Shown: one piece after another, positions 48,317-55,663 of the stretch | Layout: every line of letters begins with the position of its first letter | Position numbering within the stretch: position 1 is the stretch's first letter | Source: Bacteroidota bacterium | Lineage (GTDB): Bacteria; Bacteroidota; Bacteroidia; Bacteroidales; JABHKC01 | DNA length: 64,000 nt | Assembly: GCA_018692315.1 (NCBI GenBank) | Contig: JABHKC010000045.1 | Coordinates: 1 to 64,000, forward strand | Reading direction: 5' to 3' | Made by a program: the position numbers and the translations under genes | Notes under the pieces: model-generated | Database searches by the model: none | What the model was told of the DNA's origin: nothing | Seen by the model: only the letters and a program-made list of their open reading frames with translations

Positions 48317-49168
48317 TTACATACACCAAGTCAACAAAACAGATCCGCCAATATATGAAAATGCTTCAATTAATGCAGCACCGATATTTGGTTTTTCCTG
48401 ATTTATAATTTCGTCAGTAAGTTTTTGTCCGGGCAATAAAATTTTATCACTTAAGAATCTTACAACTGGTAATAGAATTATTCCAATTAAAACCTCAATA
48501 CCTACAAATGACAGGGTAGTAGCCCAACTTTCGAAATCGTCCATTAGGGCAAAGCGAATAAGATTTCCGATTGCTATTATTGCCCCTGCAAATCCAATTC
48601 CAACAGCTACATTGTCTTTTTCTATATGTTCGTGAATGTTATATGGAGTAATCAAATCGTAAACAAAACTAATAAGTAAAATCACGATTTGACCGATTGC
48701 CCAGAAAACCAATGCTGTCATAATACCACCACCTTCTCCGGAAACTGCTCCGAGAATTATTAGACCTGTAGCAATAGAATTTGCAGCTTCTACAACTCCT
48801 GTACCGGCATTTTGGTCATCTATTATTTCTTTTCTTACAGAAAACTTCCGTAGAATAATCTTATCGTTGATTATTATAGAAATATTTAGAAGCAAAATTG
48901 CTATAAAGCCATAAATGAAAATATCTGCTAAATCGATGAGTAAGCCATTCGAAGGTCCAATTATTGCACTTCCAATTGCCAACAATAAACCAACAAAATA
49001 TCCGGTATGTGAAATGGCAAATGCAAAATTGTCTTTATGTACAAGTTCGTCTTTTATATTAATATTTCTATGAAATAGCTGGTAAACCATTTTGCCAATA
49101 AAAAACAATATAAATCCACTTGCAAGATAAACTACTGTCGTGATTGCTAGGTCTAAGATATGTGTCAT
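48317..49168 (-). CDS. DUF350 (YjfL-like) membrane protein
   Basis: The 283-residue protein has about eight membrane helices in two DUF350 halves. Each half carries the pattern D-N-x-A-x-[AG]-I-x-x-[AT]-G (DNFAFAISHTGYFVG and DNVAVGIGFAGAIIAIG). It is the last gene of a five-gene minus-strand operon. In E. coli yjfL (DUF350) belongs to yjfIJKLMC with a PspA homologue, so a role in membrane stress or envelope modification is plausible. No enzymatic residues are evident. Confidence 0.85.
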   Translation of the reverse strand: MTHILDLAITTVVYLASGFILFFIGKMVYQLFHRNINIKDELVHKDNFAFAISHTGYFVGLLLAIGSAIIGPSNGLLIDLADIFIYGFIAILLLNISIIINDKIILRKFSVRKEIIDDQNAGTGVVEAANSIATGLIILGAVSGEGGGIMTALVFWAIGQIVILLISFVYDLITPYNIHEHIEKDNVAVGIGFAGAIIAIGNLIRFALMDDFESWATTLSFVGIEVLIGIILLPVVRFLSDKILLPGQKLTDEIINQEKPNIGAALIEAFSYIGGSVLLTWCM

Positions 49169-49211
49169 TTGGTTATTTTTTTAATAGTTAAAATAGCTTG
49201 AAAAATAAATA

Positions 49212-49955
49212 TTATTTGCCACTTCCGCCGCCTCGCGAGCGAGATCTTGAGCTGCTATACCTTGAGCTAGATCTGCTTGTTTTAGACGTACTGGAACTTC
49301 TCGAAACTTTGCTTTGCACTTTGTTCCTGAAATTTGAGCTATTTGTATATTTCGAATTACTTCTCGATTTTGTATTATTGTCGCTATATGTACCATAGTA
49401 CGATTTTCCGTTCGAGCTGGGCCCATAGTACGATTTTCTTCCGTAATAGTTTGAATGATAGTCGTTCCAATGGGTTCTGTTGGCAGGATAAGAAATCATA
49501 TGAAACATACTCGAAAGCATGGCATATTTTCCATAAAATTCCCAAAAACTACTGCCGCCTCTATCGGACCATTTTCCGTATTTTTCGTTGCCAACATAGT
49601 TGGAATAGCCGGCCGGACTTGCAGTTTTGTTAAGTTTTCCATCAGCATTTCGCGAAATAATTTCCATCCCCATATTGTTTTCGTGAAGATAAAAGAAGTC
49701 TTTGCCTACTTCTATCCAATCGGTTTTTGTATCGGAAATATTTTCATTTTTTTCAGTAACTATTTGGTATTGATGTTTGTAGGTTTTTGCAAATGTTCCT
49801 TCAACACCCATATCGTATAAAACTATTGAAAAAACTGCATCGCTGGGCAAGTCTCTTACGAGAACATCAACAGGGTTTTTTACAAATTCCTTGCTGCTGC
49901 ACGACATCAAGATTATTATCAGTAATAGGCTGAAAGATAGATGAATATTTTTCAT
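49212..49955 (-). CDS. Lipoprotein with Ser/Arg/Gly-rich tail, in the PspA operon
   Basis: The 247-residue protein has lipobox IILMSC (Cys 19). The middle has VGKDFFYLHENNMGMEI and a Tyr/Trp/Gly-rich stretch (GKYAMLSSMFHM, HSNYYGRKSYYG). The C-terminal 60 residues are almost all Ser, Arg, Lys, Asn and Gly, ending GGGSGK. Its place between DUF4178 and DUF350 corresponds roughly to the E. coli YjfM lipoprotein. The tail may contact acidic lipid or lipopolysaccharide, which is inference. Confidence 0.7.
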   Translation of the reverse strand: MKNIHLSFSLLLIIILMSCSSKEFVKNPVDVLVRDLPSDAVFSIVLYDMGVEGTFAKTYKHQYQIVTEKNENISDTKTDWIEVGKDFFYLHENNMGMEIISRNADGKLNKTASPAGYSNYVGNEKYGKWSDRGGSSFWEFYGKYAMLSSMFHMISYPANRTHWNDYHSNYYGRKSYYGPSSNGKSYYGTYSDNNTKSRSNSKYTNSSNFRNKVQSKVSRSSSTSKTSRSSSRYSSSRSRSRGGGSGK

Positions 49956-50021
49956 TTCTTTATTTTTTATAAAAGGAAATATTTAGTTTATTTTGTTTTT
50001 TCGATGGTCAAAAGTATGAAT

Positions 50022-50567
50022 TTATCCGGGCAATATATTCGATATTTCAAATTCTTTAATTACAGTACCTACTGAAGATTCAAAATCATCGTCTCCCCAT
50101 TGTTCAATATTTAGGATATTTTCGTCTGTTTCATCATAATAAGTCCAGGAAATTACTTCTGCCCAATCGTCTGTTTTATTCTCGCAATCCTTAAAAAATC
50201 CGGGATTTTCACCGTCAAGAAAATACTTTATATTTTTATATATCAACGATTTAGGAGGTTTGTCATTTTCAGAAATATATTCGGGAATATCTTCACTGAT
50301 GGTTCTGATTTTTATTTTTTTACTGATTGATATTGAAATTTCGTCGTCGTTTTCTACACTAAGAAAAAACTGTTGTTCGCCATCGTCAATTTTATATTCT
50401 CTCGAAAAAAAATTGTTTCCCCAATCGTAATCGTAAGCAGCTTTCACTATCCAGGTCTTAAGGTCGTATTCAAAAACAAAACCTTTTTGCAAGTCTAAAA
50501 CACTTATGTTGGTAGGATCGTACTCAGGTTTTTTTTCTTTTTTTTTGAACACATCAAAAATTCCCAT
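50022..50567 (-). CDS. DUF4178 protein in the PspA operon
   Basis: The 181-residue soluble protein starts MGIFDVFKKKEKKPEYDP. It continues as a beta-rich DUF4178 domain (LQKGFVFEYDLKTWIVKAAYDYDWGN, then WAEVISWTYYDETDENILNIEQWGDD). DUF4178 occurs with PspA and DUF350 genes in several phyla, often with polyamine or ATP-grasp enzymes. Its activity is unknown. The basic Lys-rich start may aid membrane association. Confidence 0.8.
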   Translation of the reverse strand: MGIFDVFKKKEKKPEYDPTNISVLDLQKGFVFEYDLKTWIVKAAYDYDWGNNFFSREYKIDDGEQQFFLSVENDDEISISISKKIKIRTISEDIPEYISENDKPPKSLIYKNIKYFLDGENPGFFKDCENKTDDWAEVISWTYYDETDENILNIEQWGDDDFESSVGTVIKEFEISNILPG

Positions 50568-50677
50568 ATTTCTTTTTTTTAAATAATCAAATTATCATTT
50601 TGTCGGAAAGCACAAACCACAAATTCATAGATAAATTATCTGTGAATTTGTGGGATTTTCTTTTACATACCGAAATG

Positions 50678-51379
50678 CTAAATTTTCATTTTTGCTTTTA
50701 GTTCAGCAAGAGCATCGGAGGCTTCAATAGATTTATCGTCTGAAAGTACAGAGTCAATTTCGTCGTCGAGGCTTTTGTTTTCGTTTGAGATATCGCCATA
50801 AGCTTGTGCCAATGCCTCATCTTGCTCCACTTTTTCTTTCATTCGTTCTAAGGTTGAAATTGTTCCACCGCTATCAATCTGAGACATTTGCTTATTGAGT
50901 TTTTTGGTAGTAGCACTAACTTTTGCTCTTGCCTTCAGAGTTTTTAGTTCGTTTTCGTAATGCGAAATATTCGACTTTAATTTTTTAACATTTGCATCAA
51001 TCTGAGAAATATTTTGTTCAAAATTCTTTGAGTTGGCTTCAGCAGTAGTTCCCTGCTTTGCGGCTTCTTCTTTTTTCAACAGAGCTTCGCTTGCTAATCT
51101 GTCGGCTTCGGCAGGTTCAATTTTTCCTTCTTGAGCTCTTTTTAAAACTAACATTGCCTTTTTTTCGTAGTCGGCAGCTTTGTTTTTATAGCTTGAAGCT
51201 TCGTTTTTCGATCTTATTGACATTGCTTTGACTTCTGCCAATGCTTGAAGACTTTTGTCGAGGTCGTTTTTCAAATCGCGTATTCCTTGCTCTGTCAACC
51301 GAATTGGGTTTTCGAGCTTATCAATTGCTGCATGGGCTTCTGCTTCACCCATCTTAAATAATCTTTGGAAAAAATTCAT
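50678..51379 (-). CDS. PspA/IM30 family membrane-stress protein
   Basis: The 233-residue protein is almost wholly coiled coil, as in PspA/Vipp1. It starts MNFFQRLFKMGEAEAHAAIDKLENP, an amphipathic helix plus hairpin. It continues with IRLTEQGIRDLKNDLDKSL, long heptad-rich helices, and DEALAQAYGDISNE near the end. PspA proteins form ESCRT-III-like rods on damaged inner membrane. The gene is second in the five-gene operon and matches YjfJ of E. coli by position. Confidence 0.88.
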   Translation of the reverse strand: MNFFQRLFKMGEAEAHAAIDKLENPIRLTEQGIRDLKNDLDKSLQALAEVKAMSIRSKNEASSYKNKAADYEKKAMLVLKRAQEGKIEPAEADRLASEALLKKEEAAKQGTTAEANSKNFEQNISQIDANVKKLKSNISHYENELKTLKARAKVSATTKKLNKQMSQIDSGGTISTLERMKEKVEQDEALAQAYGDISNENKSLDDEIDSVLSDDKSIEASDALAELKAKMKI

Positions 51380-51423
51380 TTCTATTTATTTAAATTTTAA
51401 TAATATTATATAATTCGTATGGC

Positions 51424-51819
51424 TTATTGTCTTGAAAAATTTAACATTTCATCTGTGTATTCGCTCAAAAGTAAAACTAATGAATTTAATGAGCCTTGAA
51501 TTTCGTTTATGTCAAGATTTTCTAATTGAAGTGTATCGCGAAAAATGATTTTTTTGCCCGATTCGTCGATTACGAATGCTCCATGAACGATATTCCTGTT
51601 TATTTGAAGTAGTTTTTTATATGTATCGCAATTTTCAGATTCAACATCAAATAGGTATTGCTCTATTATCAAAATAGGATCATCGCAAGCAATCATCAAA
51701 TTTTTAATGCCATCTTCTTCTTTTTGTATTACAAAAACTGAATCGTCAATGTTTTCCGAAACTATTTCGTATTCTAATTCTATAAGGTAGTTTTTTACTT
51801 TCAAAAAATAATTGTCCAT
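51424..51819 (-). CDS. YbjN/CesT-like small protein leading the PspA operon
   Basis: The 131-residue acidic protein (FVIQKEEDGIKNLMIACDDPILIIEQYLF, LLQINRNIVHGAFVIDESGKKIIFRDTLQLENLD) has the alpha-beta pattern of YbjN or type III chaperone-like folds. The phrase NRNIVHGAF...D with FRDTL resembles YjfI (DUF2170), which heads the equivalent E. coli operon. It probably acts as a chaperone or adaptor for its neighbours. The family call is moderate. Confidence 0.65.
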   Translation of the reverse strand: MDNYFLKVKNYLIELEYEIVSENIDDSVFVIQKEEDGIKNLMIACDDPILIIEQYLFDVESENCDTYKKLLQINRNIVHGAFVIDESGKKIIFRDTLQLENLDINEIQGSLNSLVLLLSEYTDEMLNFSRQ

Positions 51820-52933: not shown

Positions 52934-55663
52934 CTATTTTGTAAGAACAATTTTTCTGGTGTATATTTTATCGCCAACAATAATATTCAAAAAATAAATC
53001 CCACTTTTTAGATTATTTAAATTGATAGTATGCAGGTATTTATCGATATTGTATTCCTCAAATATTTTCTTTCCAAAGACATCAAAAACCTGAATTCCTT
53101 CAAGAGTAGAAAAATTATTTGACTGAATATTTAGAAAATTGGAAGTTGGATTCGGATAAACTGTAAGATAATCGTTGTATAAATTTTCATTGACACTCAC
53201 ATCATTCATAGTTGTAAATTTCCATGAATCGCACCACGAGCTATTTGTAATTACAGAAGAAACAGCTTTTACGTGCCAGAAATAGTCAGTTTCAAAATCT
53301 AAACCGCCAATCAGCAAAAAAGTATCGCTGGTATTTTGAGTATAAACCATACTTACAAAATTTGAATCAGTTGTGTATTGAATATAGTAGTCTTCGCTAT
53401 CTGCAACAGGGTGCCATTGCAGCATGACATTGTTTGTTGGTAGATTTATACTTAGATTTGGCGGACTTGTCAAAAATGGTGCTGCCAGCCCTACCTCACT
53501 TGTCGTGAAATGACTTGTATATGTCCAGTCGGAAACAAAATTACCATCATATGTGCGAACTCTCCAATAATATGTTGTATTAAAATTTAAGTTTAAAATA
53601 TCGGCAAATGAAACAGGGCTAAATTGTTCTGTTGCATTTGTCAAATCAGGATTTGTGCTTATTTGGAAATGGTATCCTGTGGCTCCATTTATGTCAGTCC
53701 AATCTAATTGTGGGTCGATATCTACCTCAATTTCGCTAAGAAGTGGAGAAACTAAAACTGGAGGGATTGGTAATTCAAGCATTTGATTTCCAGTACTGAA
53801 CCATCTTGTTTCCCAAATAGCAGTATCAATGGTATTACTCATTCTTACGCGCCAAAAATAAAATCGGTTTGCAGCGAGAGGTCCGGTAAAGTATTCGGTA
53901 TCAGAGCTGTCGTTACTTGCATATAGATAAGGTATGGTTTCCTGAATTAAAAATGGAGTATTAAAAGCATTGCTTGTATCAACTTCTAAATAATAAAAAT
54001 TTGCTCCCTCGTGAGCCCACCAATCTAAAGTAATGCCGGCAAGATCTTGATTTAGAGCTTCGTTTTGCGGACTGTACAAACCTACTTGTTGAAGAGTATA
54101 AAAATTCCAGGGAGTTGTCCATTTTGTTGTGTCTTCATCATTTCGTGCTCTAATTCGCCAATAATAATATTCGCCGAAATACAAATTTTCTAAATATTTT
54201 TCTGTATCAATATTTAAGCTACTTGAATTTATGTAATCGTTTATGCCTTCGTAAAATATTGGCGAATTAAAATTTATGGAAGTATCTATTTGATAATCGT
54301 AATAATTCACACCAGTGTGAGCATCCCAATCGATGGTAGTTGAAGTAAAAGTACTTGAAAATGAAATTGGAGCATTCATAAATAATGTATCGTGAATTGT
54401 AAAACTCCAGATATCAGACCAAACTGTTGTATCTACTGCATTGCGTGCTCTGACACGCCAAAAATATTTTTTGCCAAAAAACAAATTGAAAAGATAGTAT
54501 TCTGTATCTTGATTGCTGCTGAATTGATTAATGTAAGATGTAGTCCCAATGAAAATGGCAGAGGTATTAAATTGAGAGCTTGTATCTATTTGAAAATCAT
54601 AAAAATCGACACCACTATATGCATCCCAATCTATAGTTGTTCCTGTGAAAGAAAACGAATTATTTGCTGGACTGCTTAAAAACATTTCGTCTTTTGTGGT
54701 AAAATTTCTTGTAGCCGACCAGCTTGATGTATCAACTGCATTTATAGCCCGAACTCGCCAAAAATGCTGTTTCCCAAAAAATAAATCATCTACAAATTCT
54801 TCGGTATCGGAATTATTGTTCAGAAAAAATTGAAAAGTATCGATTCCTGTTTGATAGGCACCAGAATTAAAGTTTGGAGTAGTATCAACAGCAAATTGAT
54901 AAAGCTCAATTCCATCGAATGCAAACCAATCGAGTGTAATGCCAGCATAAACAAGGCTCCCATTGACTGGTTCATAGAGAGTAACATAATCGTATGTGTT
55001 GAAATTCCACGCAATTGACCAACCCGATGTATCAACTAAATTTCTGGCTCTTACTCTCCAATAGTAGGTTTTTCCAAAATATAAGTTCTCAATAAATTCT
55101 TCGCTATCAGAAAAATTATTCAAATAGCTTAAATATGCAGTGCTACCCTGGACAAGTGCTACTGAATTAAAATTTGGGCTTGTATCTAATTCAAAATCGT
55201 AATTATCAACTCCCTCGTGAGCATTCCAGTCTAATAATATTCCTGTGAAATTATAAGTTCCCGAGAAGGGCAACGATAAATTGACATAATTTCTTGTAAT
55301 GAAAGCCATATTTGAAGACCACGCAGAGGTATCTGTTGCGGAAAGTGTCCGAACTCGCCAGTAATAGGTTTCACCAAAGAACAAATCATCGACGAAATGT
55401 TCGGTGTCACCCCAAGTATTTGCTGTACCTAATGATGCCTCAAGTGTATCGAACAGAAATGGAGAATTGAAGCTGGTAACTGAATCAATCTGGAGTTGAT
55501 AGTAGCTGGCTCCTGCAACAGCATTCCAATCTAACATTACACCTGCCCATGTAAGTGAAGAGTTAAACGGCGAGACCAGAACTGGGGCATCTATTGCAAA
55601 GTTCATTCTGAAACAGAGCATTAGTACTATATAAAGGCTTAAGAATTTCGAAGTTTTTAACAT
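52934..55663 (-). CDS. T9SS-secreted protein with about eight fibronectin-like repeats
   Basis: The 909-residue protein has a signal peptide and then about six units of roughly 95-100 residues. Each has I-x-L-D-W-x-A-x-x-G-x-x-x-Y-x-x-x-x-D-T-S-x-x-F-N-S near the start and F-G-K-x-Y-Y-W-R-V-R-A-x-N-x-x-D-T-x-x-W near the end. Two more diverged FN3-like units follow (TDINGATGYHFQIS, WHPVADSEDYYIQY). The end is a T9SS sorting domain (VYPNPTSNFLNIQ, VFDVFGKKI, SGIYFLNI). It is likely a surface adhesin or structural protein. Confidence 0.85.
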   Translation of the reverse strand: MLKTSKFLSLYIVLMLCFRMNFAIDAPVLVSPFNSSLTWAGVMLDWNAVAGASYYQLQIDSVTSFNSPFLFDTLEASLGTANTWGDTEHFVDDLFFGETYYWRVRTLSATDTSAWSSNMAFITRNYVNLSLPFSGTYNFTGILLDWNAHEGVDNYDFELDTSPNFNSVALVQGSTAYLSYLNNFSDSEEFIENLYFGKTYYWRVRARNLVDTSGWSIAWNFNTYDYVTLYEPVNGSLVYAGITLDWFAFDGIELYQFAVDTTPNFNSGAYQTGIDTFQFFLNNNSDTEEFVDDLFFGKQHFWRVRAINAVDTSSWSATRNFTTKDEMFLSSPANNSFSFTGTTIDWDAYSGVDFYDFQIDTSSQFNTSAIFIGTTSYINQFSSNQDTEYYLFNLFFGKKYFWRVRARNAVDTTVWSDIWSFTIHDTLFMNAPISFSSTFTSTTIDWDAHTGVNYYDYQIDTSINFNSPIFYEGINDYINSSSLNIDTEKYLENLYFGEYYYWRIRARNDEDTTKWTTPWNFYTLQQVGLYSPQNEALNQDLAGITLDWWAHEGANFYYLEVDTSNAFNTPFLIQETIPYLYASNDSSDTEYFTGPLAANRFYFWRVRMSNTIDTAIWETRWFSTGNQMLELPIPPVLVSPLLSEIEVDIDPQLDWTDINGATGYHFQISTNPDLTNATEQFSPVSFADILNLNFNTTYYWRVRTYDGNFVSDWTYTSHFTTSEVGLAAPFLTSPPNLSINLPTNNVMLQWHPVADSEDYYIQYTTDSNFVSMVYTQNTSDTFLLIGGLDFETDYFWHVKAVSSVITNSSWCDSWKFTTMNDVSVNENLYNDYLTVYPNPTSNFLNIQSNNFSTLEGIQVFDVFGKKIFEEYNIDKYLHTINLNNLKSGIYFLNIIVGDKIYTRKIVLTK

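What the first reader, a model, noticed from the sequence alone, without database searches (positions are those of the whole stretch)
48317..51819. Five-gene PspA-DUF4178-lipoprotein-DUF350 operon, a yjf-like cassette
Gene order on the minus strand is YbjN/CesT-like, PspA, DUF4178, Ser/Arg/Gly-tailed lipoprotein, DUF350. It parallels E. coli yjfI, yjfJ (PspA), yjfK, yjfL (DUF350), yjfM (lipoprotein), but lacks an ATP-grasp (YjfC-like) enzyme. A cross-phylum unit of cytosolic chaperone, membrane-rod protein, DUF350 channel-like protein and outer lipoprotein suggests a membrane-repair machine of unknown mechanism.
Basis: partly seen in the sequence, partly recalled or inferred. Interest (0 to 1): 0.6.

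Follow-up and report, generated by a model that had tools for sequence, protein, structure and literature searches.

The report
Split aminopropyltransferase–PspA envelope operon, tail conserved
Five neighbouring membrane-stress genes turn out to be most of a known eight-gene bacterial operon whose enzyme genes have moved elsewhere in this genome, and the lipoprotein among them ends in an invariant lysine that may be the unknown target of that enzyme.

Summary
The five minus-strand genes at 48317-51819 are real and their order is conserved, but the comparison with E. coli yjf is only partial. The cassette is the CesT/Tir-PspA-DUF4178-lipoprotein-DUF350(x2) part of an operon already described (Ravi 2024, second PspA group). 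In relatives that operon continues with a 7TM-fused spermidine-synthase-like aminopropyltransferase (SpeE7TM), AdoMet decarboxylase and a K+ channel. The 'missing' enzymes are in this genome, at separate loci. All 18 DUF4178-bearing genomes of 395 Bacteroidota carry SpeE7TM (11 of 377 others do); only this genome has them unlinked. What looks new is the lipoprotein's disordered Ser/Arg/Gly tail, which ends in lysine in 84 of 84 homologues. In 26 of 26 other SpeE7TM operons, some from Proteobacteria and Gemmatimonadota, an unrelated membrane-anchored tail also ends in lysine. SpeE7TM is predicted to face the periplasm, as are the tails. Tails next to ATP-grasp peptide-spermidine ligases (the true yjf type) mostly end in Gly-Gly instead. 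I propose that the tail C-terminus is the acceptor for polyamine-type modification. Identity is near certain; the mechanism is inferred (about 0.4). A Braun-lipoprotein-like peptidoglycan link and a lipid substrate are the main rivals.

The parts
51424..51819 (-). CesT/Tir-like chaperone gene, 131 aa, first gene of the cassette
   Evidence: CesT_Tir_1 PF22550 5e-53 over 1-131; first gene in relatives' operons
50678..51379 (-). PspA/IM30 (ESCRT-III-like) gene, 233 aa
   Evidence: PF04012 1.1e-37; 74% identical to PspA of L111
50617..50653 (.). 17-bp inverted repeat with 3-nt loop between pspA and DUF4178; no other copy in the genome within 3 mismatches
50022..50567 (-). DUF4178 protein, 181 aa, no signal peptide, predicted cytosolic
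   Evidence: PF13785 5.1e-20
49212..49955 (-). Lipoprotein, 247 aa, invariant lipobox Cys19; part of the same operon in relatives
   Evidence: No Pfam hit; homologues in 8 of 395 Bacteroidota, all with SpeE7TM; Cys19 invariant in 39 sequences
49215..49490 (-). Disordered Ser/Arg/Gly-rich C-terminal tail (about residues 156-247) ending ..SRSRGGGSGK
   Evidence: pLDDT mostly under 50 over 156-247; in residues 178-247 only Gly178, Gly188, Arg239, Gly246 and Lys247 are invariant
49215..49217 (-). Codon of the C-terminal Lys247, proposed acceptor residue
   Evidence: Lys is the last residue in 84 of 84 complete homologues; background 17.5% of 565 ORFs
48317..49168 (-). Tandem DUF350 (8TM) membrane protein, 283 aa, last gene of the cassette here
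   Evidence: PF03994 twice; in relatives the next gene is SpeE7TM

Best explanation
The cassette is the 5' part of the CesT-PspA-DUF4178-lipoprotein-DUF350-SpeE7TM-AdoMetDC-(K+ channel) operon; in this genome the last three genes lie elsewhere and act in trans. Proposed mechanism: AdoMetDC makes decarboxylated AdoMet in the cytosol. SpeE7TM, a transporter-like 7TM domain fused to an aminopropyltransferase domain that is predicted to face the periplasm, transfers aminopropyl groups to the side chain of the C-terminal lysine (perhaps also other residues) of the membrane-anchored Ser/Arg/Gly tail carried by the lipoprotein. DUF350, the constant partner, would deliver the donor or hold the tail. 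PspA, its CesT-like chaperone and DUF4178 would couple the state of this polycationic tail, an envelope sensor or stabiliser, to the inner face of the membrane. Shown by sequence: gene content, orthologues in trans, linkage, invariant terminal Lys, predicted topology, aminopropyltransferase fold. Inferred: acceptor identity, donor export, physiological role. The identity of the cassette alone I would put at 0.95; the confidence below is for the whole, mechanism included.
For: (1) Own genome: one strong Spermine_synth hit, a 511-aa SpeE7TM at C57 (3.5e-40); one AdoMetDC at C28; K+-channel orthologue, 54% identical, at C82. (2) SpeE7TM in 18 of 18 DUF4178 genomes versus 11 of 377 others (Fisher 6e-24) and in 8 of 8 lipoprotein genomes. 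(3) The own SpeE7TM is mostly 59-66% identical to SpeE7TM inside the closest intact operons, against 34-42% for the other architecture. (4) Terminal Lys in 84 of 84 lipoproteins. (5) Lys-terminated membrane-anchored tails in 26 further SpeE7TM operons that lack this lipoprotein family, including Ensifer, Burkholderia, Tritonibacter, Alteromonas, Novosphingobium and Gemmatirosa. (6) Contrast: 11 tail proteins (DUF1190 or alike) next to ATP-grasp peptide-spermidine ligases or their homologues have no terminal Lys, and 9 of 11 end in Gly-Gly. (7) Topology: K/R are concentrated at the N-terminus and in loops 2-3, 4-5 and 6-7 of SpeE7TM, so 7 TM puts the enzyme domain outside (94 sequences); small tails are N-in/C-out in 15 of 16, none opposite. 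(8) Model pLDDT 90.6; enzyme domain Z 34.4, 2.9 A over 284 residues to 3anx; GGGDG and DxxDP motifs kept. (9) Literature: bacterial homologues of this kind of fusion are reported not to be involved in spermidine or spermine synthesis (PMC12803844, citing doi 10.1042/BCJ20190561).
Against: No modification has been observed. An enzyme domain outside the cytosol needs export of dcAdoMet, for which there is no direct evidence. The 84 lipoproteins are homologous and not independent; in four other loci (L040, L206, L208, L210) the tail protein was picked with its C-terminus in view. Two divergent SpeE7TM homologues (L202, L203) have no operon and no tail. YjfC-type ligases need ATP, so their tails would have to be modified before export, unlike the model here. 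A C-terminal Lys could serve another purpose. Spermidine synthesis by SpeE7TM in this organism is not excluded by my data alone.
Confidence: 0.42

Rival explanations
1. The C-terminal lysine is a peptidoglycan anchor, as in Braun lipoprotein Lpp, whose last Lys is joined by its side chain to meso-diaminopimelate by L,D-transpeptidases. The tail would tether the envelope, with PspA and DUF350 sensing tension; the aminopropyltransferase would act on something else.
For: A lipoprotein or single-TM protein with an exported disordered tail ending in invariant Lys is what Lpp looks like (own knowledge). L,D-transpeptidases are common in bacteria (own knowledge).
Against: Does not explain why every such tail found sits next to SpeE7TM or in a genome that has it, nor why tails next to ATP-grasp ligases end in Gly-Gly.
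Confidence: 0.15
2. SpeE7TM aminopropylates a lipid head group, LPS or peptidoglycan amine; the lipoprotein tail only senses or binds the modified envelope, and PspA responds to the changed membrane.
For: Membrane enzyme predicted to face the periplasm; homologues reported to act outside polyamine synthesis (PMC12803844); PspA binds membranes (own knowledge).
Against: Gives no reason for the strict C-terminal Lys or for the Gly-Gly end next to the other enzyme class.
Confidence: 0.22
3. A plain PSP-type membrane-repair operon: PspA rods with chaperone, DUF350 channel and lipoprotein, no enzymatic modification.
For: PspA and CesT are present; in this window no enzyme gene is adjacent.
Against: The enzymes are in the genome and are the most constant partners; PspA/CesT is missing from many otherwise intact operons.
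Confidence: 0.1
4. SpeE7TM and AdoMetDC simply make spermidine (or another free polyamine) in this organism, and the cassette responds to polyamines.
For: It is the only strong aminopropyltransferase hit in the genome, and no carboxyspermidine decarboxylase was found.
Against: No alanine-racemase-fold ornithine/arginine decarboxylase was found, so no putrescine route is evident (other decarboxylases and uptake untested); homologues are reported not to be involved in spermidine or spermine synthesis (PMC12803844).
Confidence: 0.08

Closest known systems
CesT/Tir-PspA operon with 7TM-spermine synthase, DUF350, DUF4178 and Ctha_1186 lipoprotein (second group of Ravi et al. 2024, PMC11237479; e.g. 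AAN56744-AAN56747)
   Same: Same gene set and, for the five genes present, the same kinds of proteins; orthologues of the remaining genes occur in this genome
   Different: Here the aminopropyltransferase, AdoMetDC and K+ channel are unlinked. The paper's main text says nothing of the terminal lysine or of a periplasmic enzyme domain (no 'lysine' or 'periplasm' in its text)
E. coli yjfIJKLMC and ygiBC (DUF2170, PspA, DUF2491, DUF350, DUF1190, peptide-spermidine ligase)
   Same: PspA and DUF350 homologues; a Ser/Arg/Gly-rich exported tail protein next to a polyamine-attaching enzyme
   Different: Other chaperone, cytosolic and lipoprotein families; single DUF350; ATP-grasp enzyme; tails end in Gly-Gly, not Lys
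AdoMetDC with a membrane protein-spermidine synthase fusion of 'polyamine-independent' role (Li et al. 2019, doi 10.1042/BCJ20190561)
   Same: SpeE7TM and AdoMetDC of this genome are of this kind; substrate unknown
   Different: That work, known to me only through citing papers and memory, does not to my knowledge name an acceptor
Braun lipoprotein Lpp
   Same: Lipoprotein ending in Lys (own knowledge)
   Different: No sequence relationship tested or apparent; next to an aminopropyltransferase; peptidoglycan linkage untested

Membership tests
Ravi 2024 second CesT/Tir-PspA operon group | CesT/Tir-PspA dyad | tested here: met
Ravi 2024 second CesT/Tir-PspA operon group | 8TM DUF350 (two copies in one protein) | tested here: met
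Ravi 2024 second CesT/Tir-PspA operon group | DUF4178 protein without signal peptide | tested here: met
   sequence
Ravi 2024 second CesT/Tir-PspA operon group | Ctha_1186-type lipoprotein | tested here: inconclusive
   Lipoprotein in the matching position with lipobox; the Ctha_1186 profile was not available
Ravi 2024 second CesT/Tir-PspA operon group | 7TM-fused spermine/spermidine synthase in the same operon | tested here: not met
   Absent from the cassette; orthologue unlinked at G000 C57. Hence described as a split variant, not a standard member
E. coli yjf-type operon (third group) | DUF2170 YjfI, DUF2491 YjfK and DUF1190 YjfM families | tested here: not met
E. coli yjf-type operon (third group) | ATP-grasp peptide-spermidine ligase next to the tail protein | tested here: not met
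   No such gene next to the cassette; the whole genome was not searched for it
E. coli yjf-type operon (third group) | PspA and DUF350 homologues | tested here: met
Aminopropyltransferase (for SpeE7TM) | Spermidine-synthase fold and dcAdoMet-site motifs | tested here: met
Aminopropyltransferase (for SpeE7TM) | Activity on a defined acceptor | not testable with these tools
   needs biochemistry
Braun lipoprotein-like anchor | C-terminal Lys joined to peptidoglycan | not testable with these tools
   terminal Lys present; linkage unknown

The most novel reading that the evidence does not exclude
A widespread bacterial system that attaches polyamine-type groups to the extreme C-terminus of exported, disordered, membrane-anchored tails, with the terminal residue matched to the enzyme: Lys for a periplasm-facing aminopropyltransferase, Gly-Gly for ATP-grasp peptide-spermidine ligases. 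DUF350 would be the common membrane partner and PspA an optional responder.
Probability: 0.38. Interest if true: 0.85.

Novelty: new variant of a known kind. Interest (0 to 1): 0.6.

Why it matters
The substrate of the AdoMetDC/membrane aminopropyltransferase pair, widespread in bacteria according to the literature as I remember it, has been unknown. An invariant lysine at the end of the neighbouring exported tail, kept across unrelated proteins and phyla, gives a concrete candidate that one mass-spectrometry experiment can test. It also gives DUF350, DUF4178, DUF1190 and these PspA operons one common theme, polyamine-type modification of an envelope protein tail, and shows that an 'enzyme-less' cassette such as this one can have its enzymes encoded elsewhere.

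Tried and rejected
Yjf membership was rejected by family and pairwise tests. The missing enzyme as a contig-end artefact was rejected: the cassette (C45, 76.5 kb), SpeE7TM (C57, 46.0 kb) and AdoMetDC (C28, 144 kb) all lie inside contigs; a chimeric assembly or binning error is not strictly excluded. The hairpin at 50617-50653 as a repeat element was rejected: it is the only copy. Anti-phage system: no PADLOC hit beyond coiled-coil noise. Lipoprotein fold: model weak (pLDDT 65.8) and no PDB match below E 0.1, so no fold is claimed. Promoter scans gave no more than chance; only a -7-like TATCTTTG 74 bp before the first gene was seen, without a clear -33 partner. Carboxyspermidine route: nspC not found. 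A Gammaproteobacteria genome sample could not be centred, so plasmid/chromid records were used instead. Pederick 2023 and Li 2019 could not be read here (Li 2019 not held; Pederick 2023 seen only as a citation), so I could not check whether either already proposed the tails as substrates.
Full report
OBSERVATION. The five ORFs are present where stated, on the minus strand: 131-aa CesT/Tir-like (51424-51819), 233-aa PspA (50678-51379), 181-aa DUF4178 (50022-50567), 247-aa lipoprotein (49212-49955) and 283-aa tandem DUF350 (48317-49168). Gaps are 43-110 bp. Downstream lies a convergent comM/yifB gene; upstream lies a divergent DUF4476 gene. PADLOC shows no defence link.

WHAT IT IS. Ravi et al. 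[quoted passage not shown] The window has everything except that enzyme. I therefore searched the rest of the genome (4.98 Mb, 248 contigs, 99.6% complete). One strong Spermine_synth hit is a 511-aa 7TM fusion ('SpeE7TM') at C57:30236-31771, far from the cassette and behind two small membrane-protein genes. One AdoMetDC lies at C28. A K+ channel, 54% identical to the channel that ends relatives' operons, lies at C82.

LINKAGE. In 395 Bacteroidota genomes DUF4178 occurs in 18, all of which have a full-length SpeE7TM; only 11 of the other 377 have one (Fisher 6e-24). In the 17 others the two genes lie within a few kilobases. The lipoprotein family occurs in 8 genomes, all with SpeE7TM. In 80 DUF350 loci from named genomes (mostly Bacteroidales, Marinilabiliales, Cytophagales and Flammeovirgaceae, but also Neomarinimicrobiota, Kapaibacterium and Brocadiaceae), 73 have SpeE7TM directly after DUF350, and many show the full order CesT-PspA-DUF4178-lipoprotein-DUF350-SpeE7TM-AdoMetDC-channel. 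The closest relative, L111 (Bacteroidales, DUF350 74% identical), has all eight genes together, so the window's arrangement is most simply a derived split after DUF350. Four other loci (L114, L157, L159, L188) also lack SpeE7TM next to DUF350 with at least 3 kb of sequence beyond.

CORE OF THE SYSTEM. PspA/CesT is dispensable for the arrangement: several loci have lipoprotein-DUF350-SpeE7TM without it, and L157 and L159 keep only lipoprotein-DUF350. In a second architecture (AdoMetDC, DUF4178 of about 410-490 aa, 45-83-aa single-TM protein, 71-98-aa DUF350, SpeE7TM, flavin amine-oxidase-like protein) no PspA was found near the genes.

THE TAIL. All 84 complete lipoproteins end in lysine (..R[SA]R[SG]..G[FYSG]GK in most); 17.5% of 565 unrelated ORFs do. 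In the disordered tail (pLDDT mostly below 50) only five positions between residues 178 and 247 are invariant in 39 sequences: Gly178, Gly188, Arg239, Gly246 and Lys247. The unrelated single-TM proteins of the second architecture also end in lysine (..FYHK..YYHK..QHK..SHK), and in L042 and L048 the tail is fused to DUF4178 (..RGFGK..SGSHK). As a test on other phyla I took SpeE7TM from plasmid and chromid records. Ensifer ends ..PESGK, Burkholderia ..YGSHK, Tritonibacter ..SNRVK, Alteromonas (510-aa lipoprotein) ..PSSGK, two Novosphingobium ..GPSHK and Gemmatirosa ..RFRHGK. That makes 26 of 26 operons outside the lipoprotein family (L035, L036, L039, L040, L042-L044, L046-L048, L193-L201, L205-L211). 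In four of them (L040, L206, L208, L210) the candidate was chosen with the C-terminus in view, so the count is partly post hoc. Two divergent SpeE7TM homologues without any operon partner (L202, L203) have no tail.

CONTRAST SET. E. coli YjfC and YgiC are peptide-spermidine ligases (Pederick 2023, doi 10.1021/acs.biochem.2c00592, known here through PMC12568646 and PMC10948618). Their neighbours YjfM and YgiB, and nine further exported tail proteins next to homologues of these ligases, carry the same kind of tail, but 9 of 11 end in Gly-Gly, one in CCG and one in SGS, and none in Lys. An amide ligase related to glutathionylspermidine synthetase uses a C-terminal glycine carboxylate; an aminopropyltransferase uses an amine (own knowledge). 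The terminal residue thus matches the chemistry of the neighbouring enzyme.

TOPOLOGY AND FOLD. Over 94 SpeE7TM sequences, K/R are concentrated at the N-terminus and in loops 2-3, 4-5 and 6-7 and nearly absent from the other loops. With seven TM segments this places the C-terminal enzyme domain outside. The model (pLDDT 90.6) has a spermidine-synthase fold (Z 34.4, 2.9 A over 284 residues to 3anx) and the sequence keeps the GGGDG and DxxDP motifs, while the loop after DxxDP differs. DSSP joins TM5 and TM6 into one helix in the model, so the count of seven rests on hydropathy, charge and the published '7TM' label. Small tails are predicted N-in/C-out in 15 of 16 cases, none opposite, so tail and enzyme would be on the same side.

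MECHANISM. Shown: components, linkage, trans-encoded enzymes, tail conservation, predicted topology. Inferred: that Lys247 is aminopropylated, that DUF350 or the 7TM part brings decarboxylated AdoMet across, and that the modified cationic tail acts as an envelope sensor or stabiliser read by PspA/CesT. The genome has no hit to alanine-racemase-fold ornithine/arginine decarboxylases or to nspC, so an ordinary putrescine-to-spermidine role is not obvious, and homologues of the fusion are reported not to be involved in spermidine or spermine synthesis (PMC12803844). Other polyamine routes and uptake were not tested.

VERDICT. The cassette is a split variant of a described operon. The mechanism suggested by the lysine-terminated tails appears new, with the caveat that two key papers could not be read here, and it is directly testable.

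Noticed in passing
window 50617-50653: 17-bp inverted repeat with a 3-nt loop between pspA and DUF4178, single copy in the genome; possible mRNA-processing or partial-termination hairpin.
   Followed up: partly
G000 whole genome: No hit to the Orn/Arg/DAP decarboxylase family PF02784, although 13 of 14 control genomes have one.
   Followed up: partly
L157:7212-8852, L159:7230-8852: Minimal lipoprotein-DUF350 pair behind a response-regulator gene, without PspA, CesT, DUF4178 or SpeE7TM nearby.
   Followed up: no
L114:8868-9803: A CHAD-domain gene directly follows DUF350 where SpeE7TM is expected.
   Followed up: no
L196:8233-9864 and similar genes in L043, L044, L193-L201, L211: A flavin amine-oxidase-like gene lies directly or shortly after SpeE7TM in the second architecture; it might oxidise an aminopropylated tail.
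   Followed up: no
L166, L173, L179, L182, L184, L187: A second, divergent SpeE7TM gene, in most cases with an adjacent K+ channel or AdoMetDC gene, lies a few kilobases from the first operon on the other strand.
   Followed up: no
L113: A contig labelled Desulfobacterales MAG carries a Bacteroidota-like operon (DUF350 70% identical): transfer or mis-binning.
   Followed up: no
window 52934-55663 (-): 909-aa repetitive fibronectin-like surface protein with a Por secretion C-terminal sorting domain.
   Followed up: no
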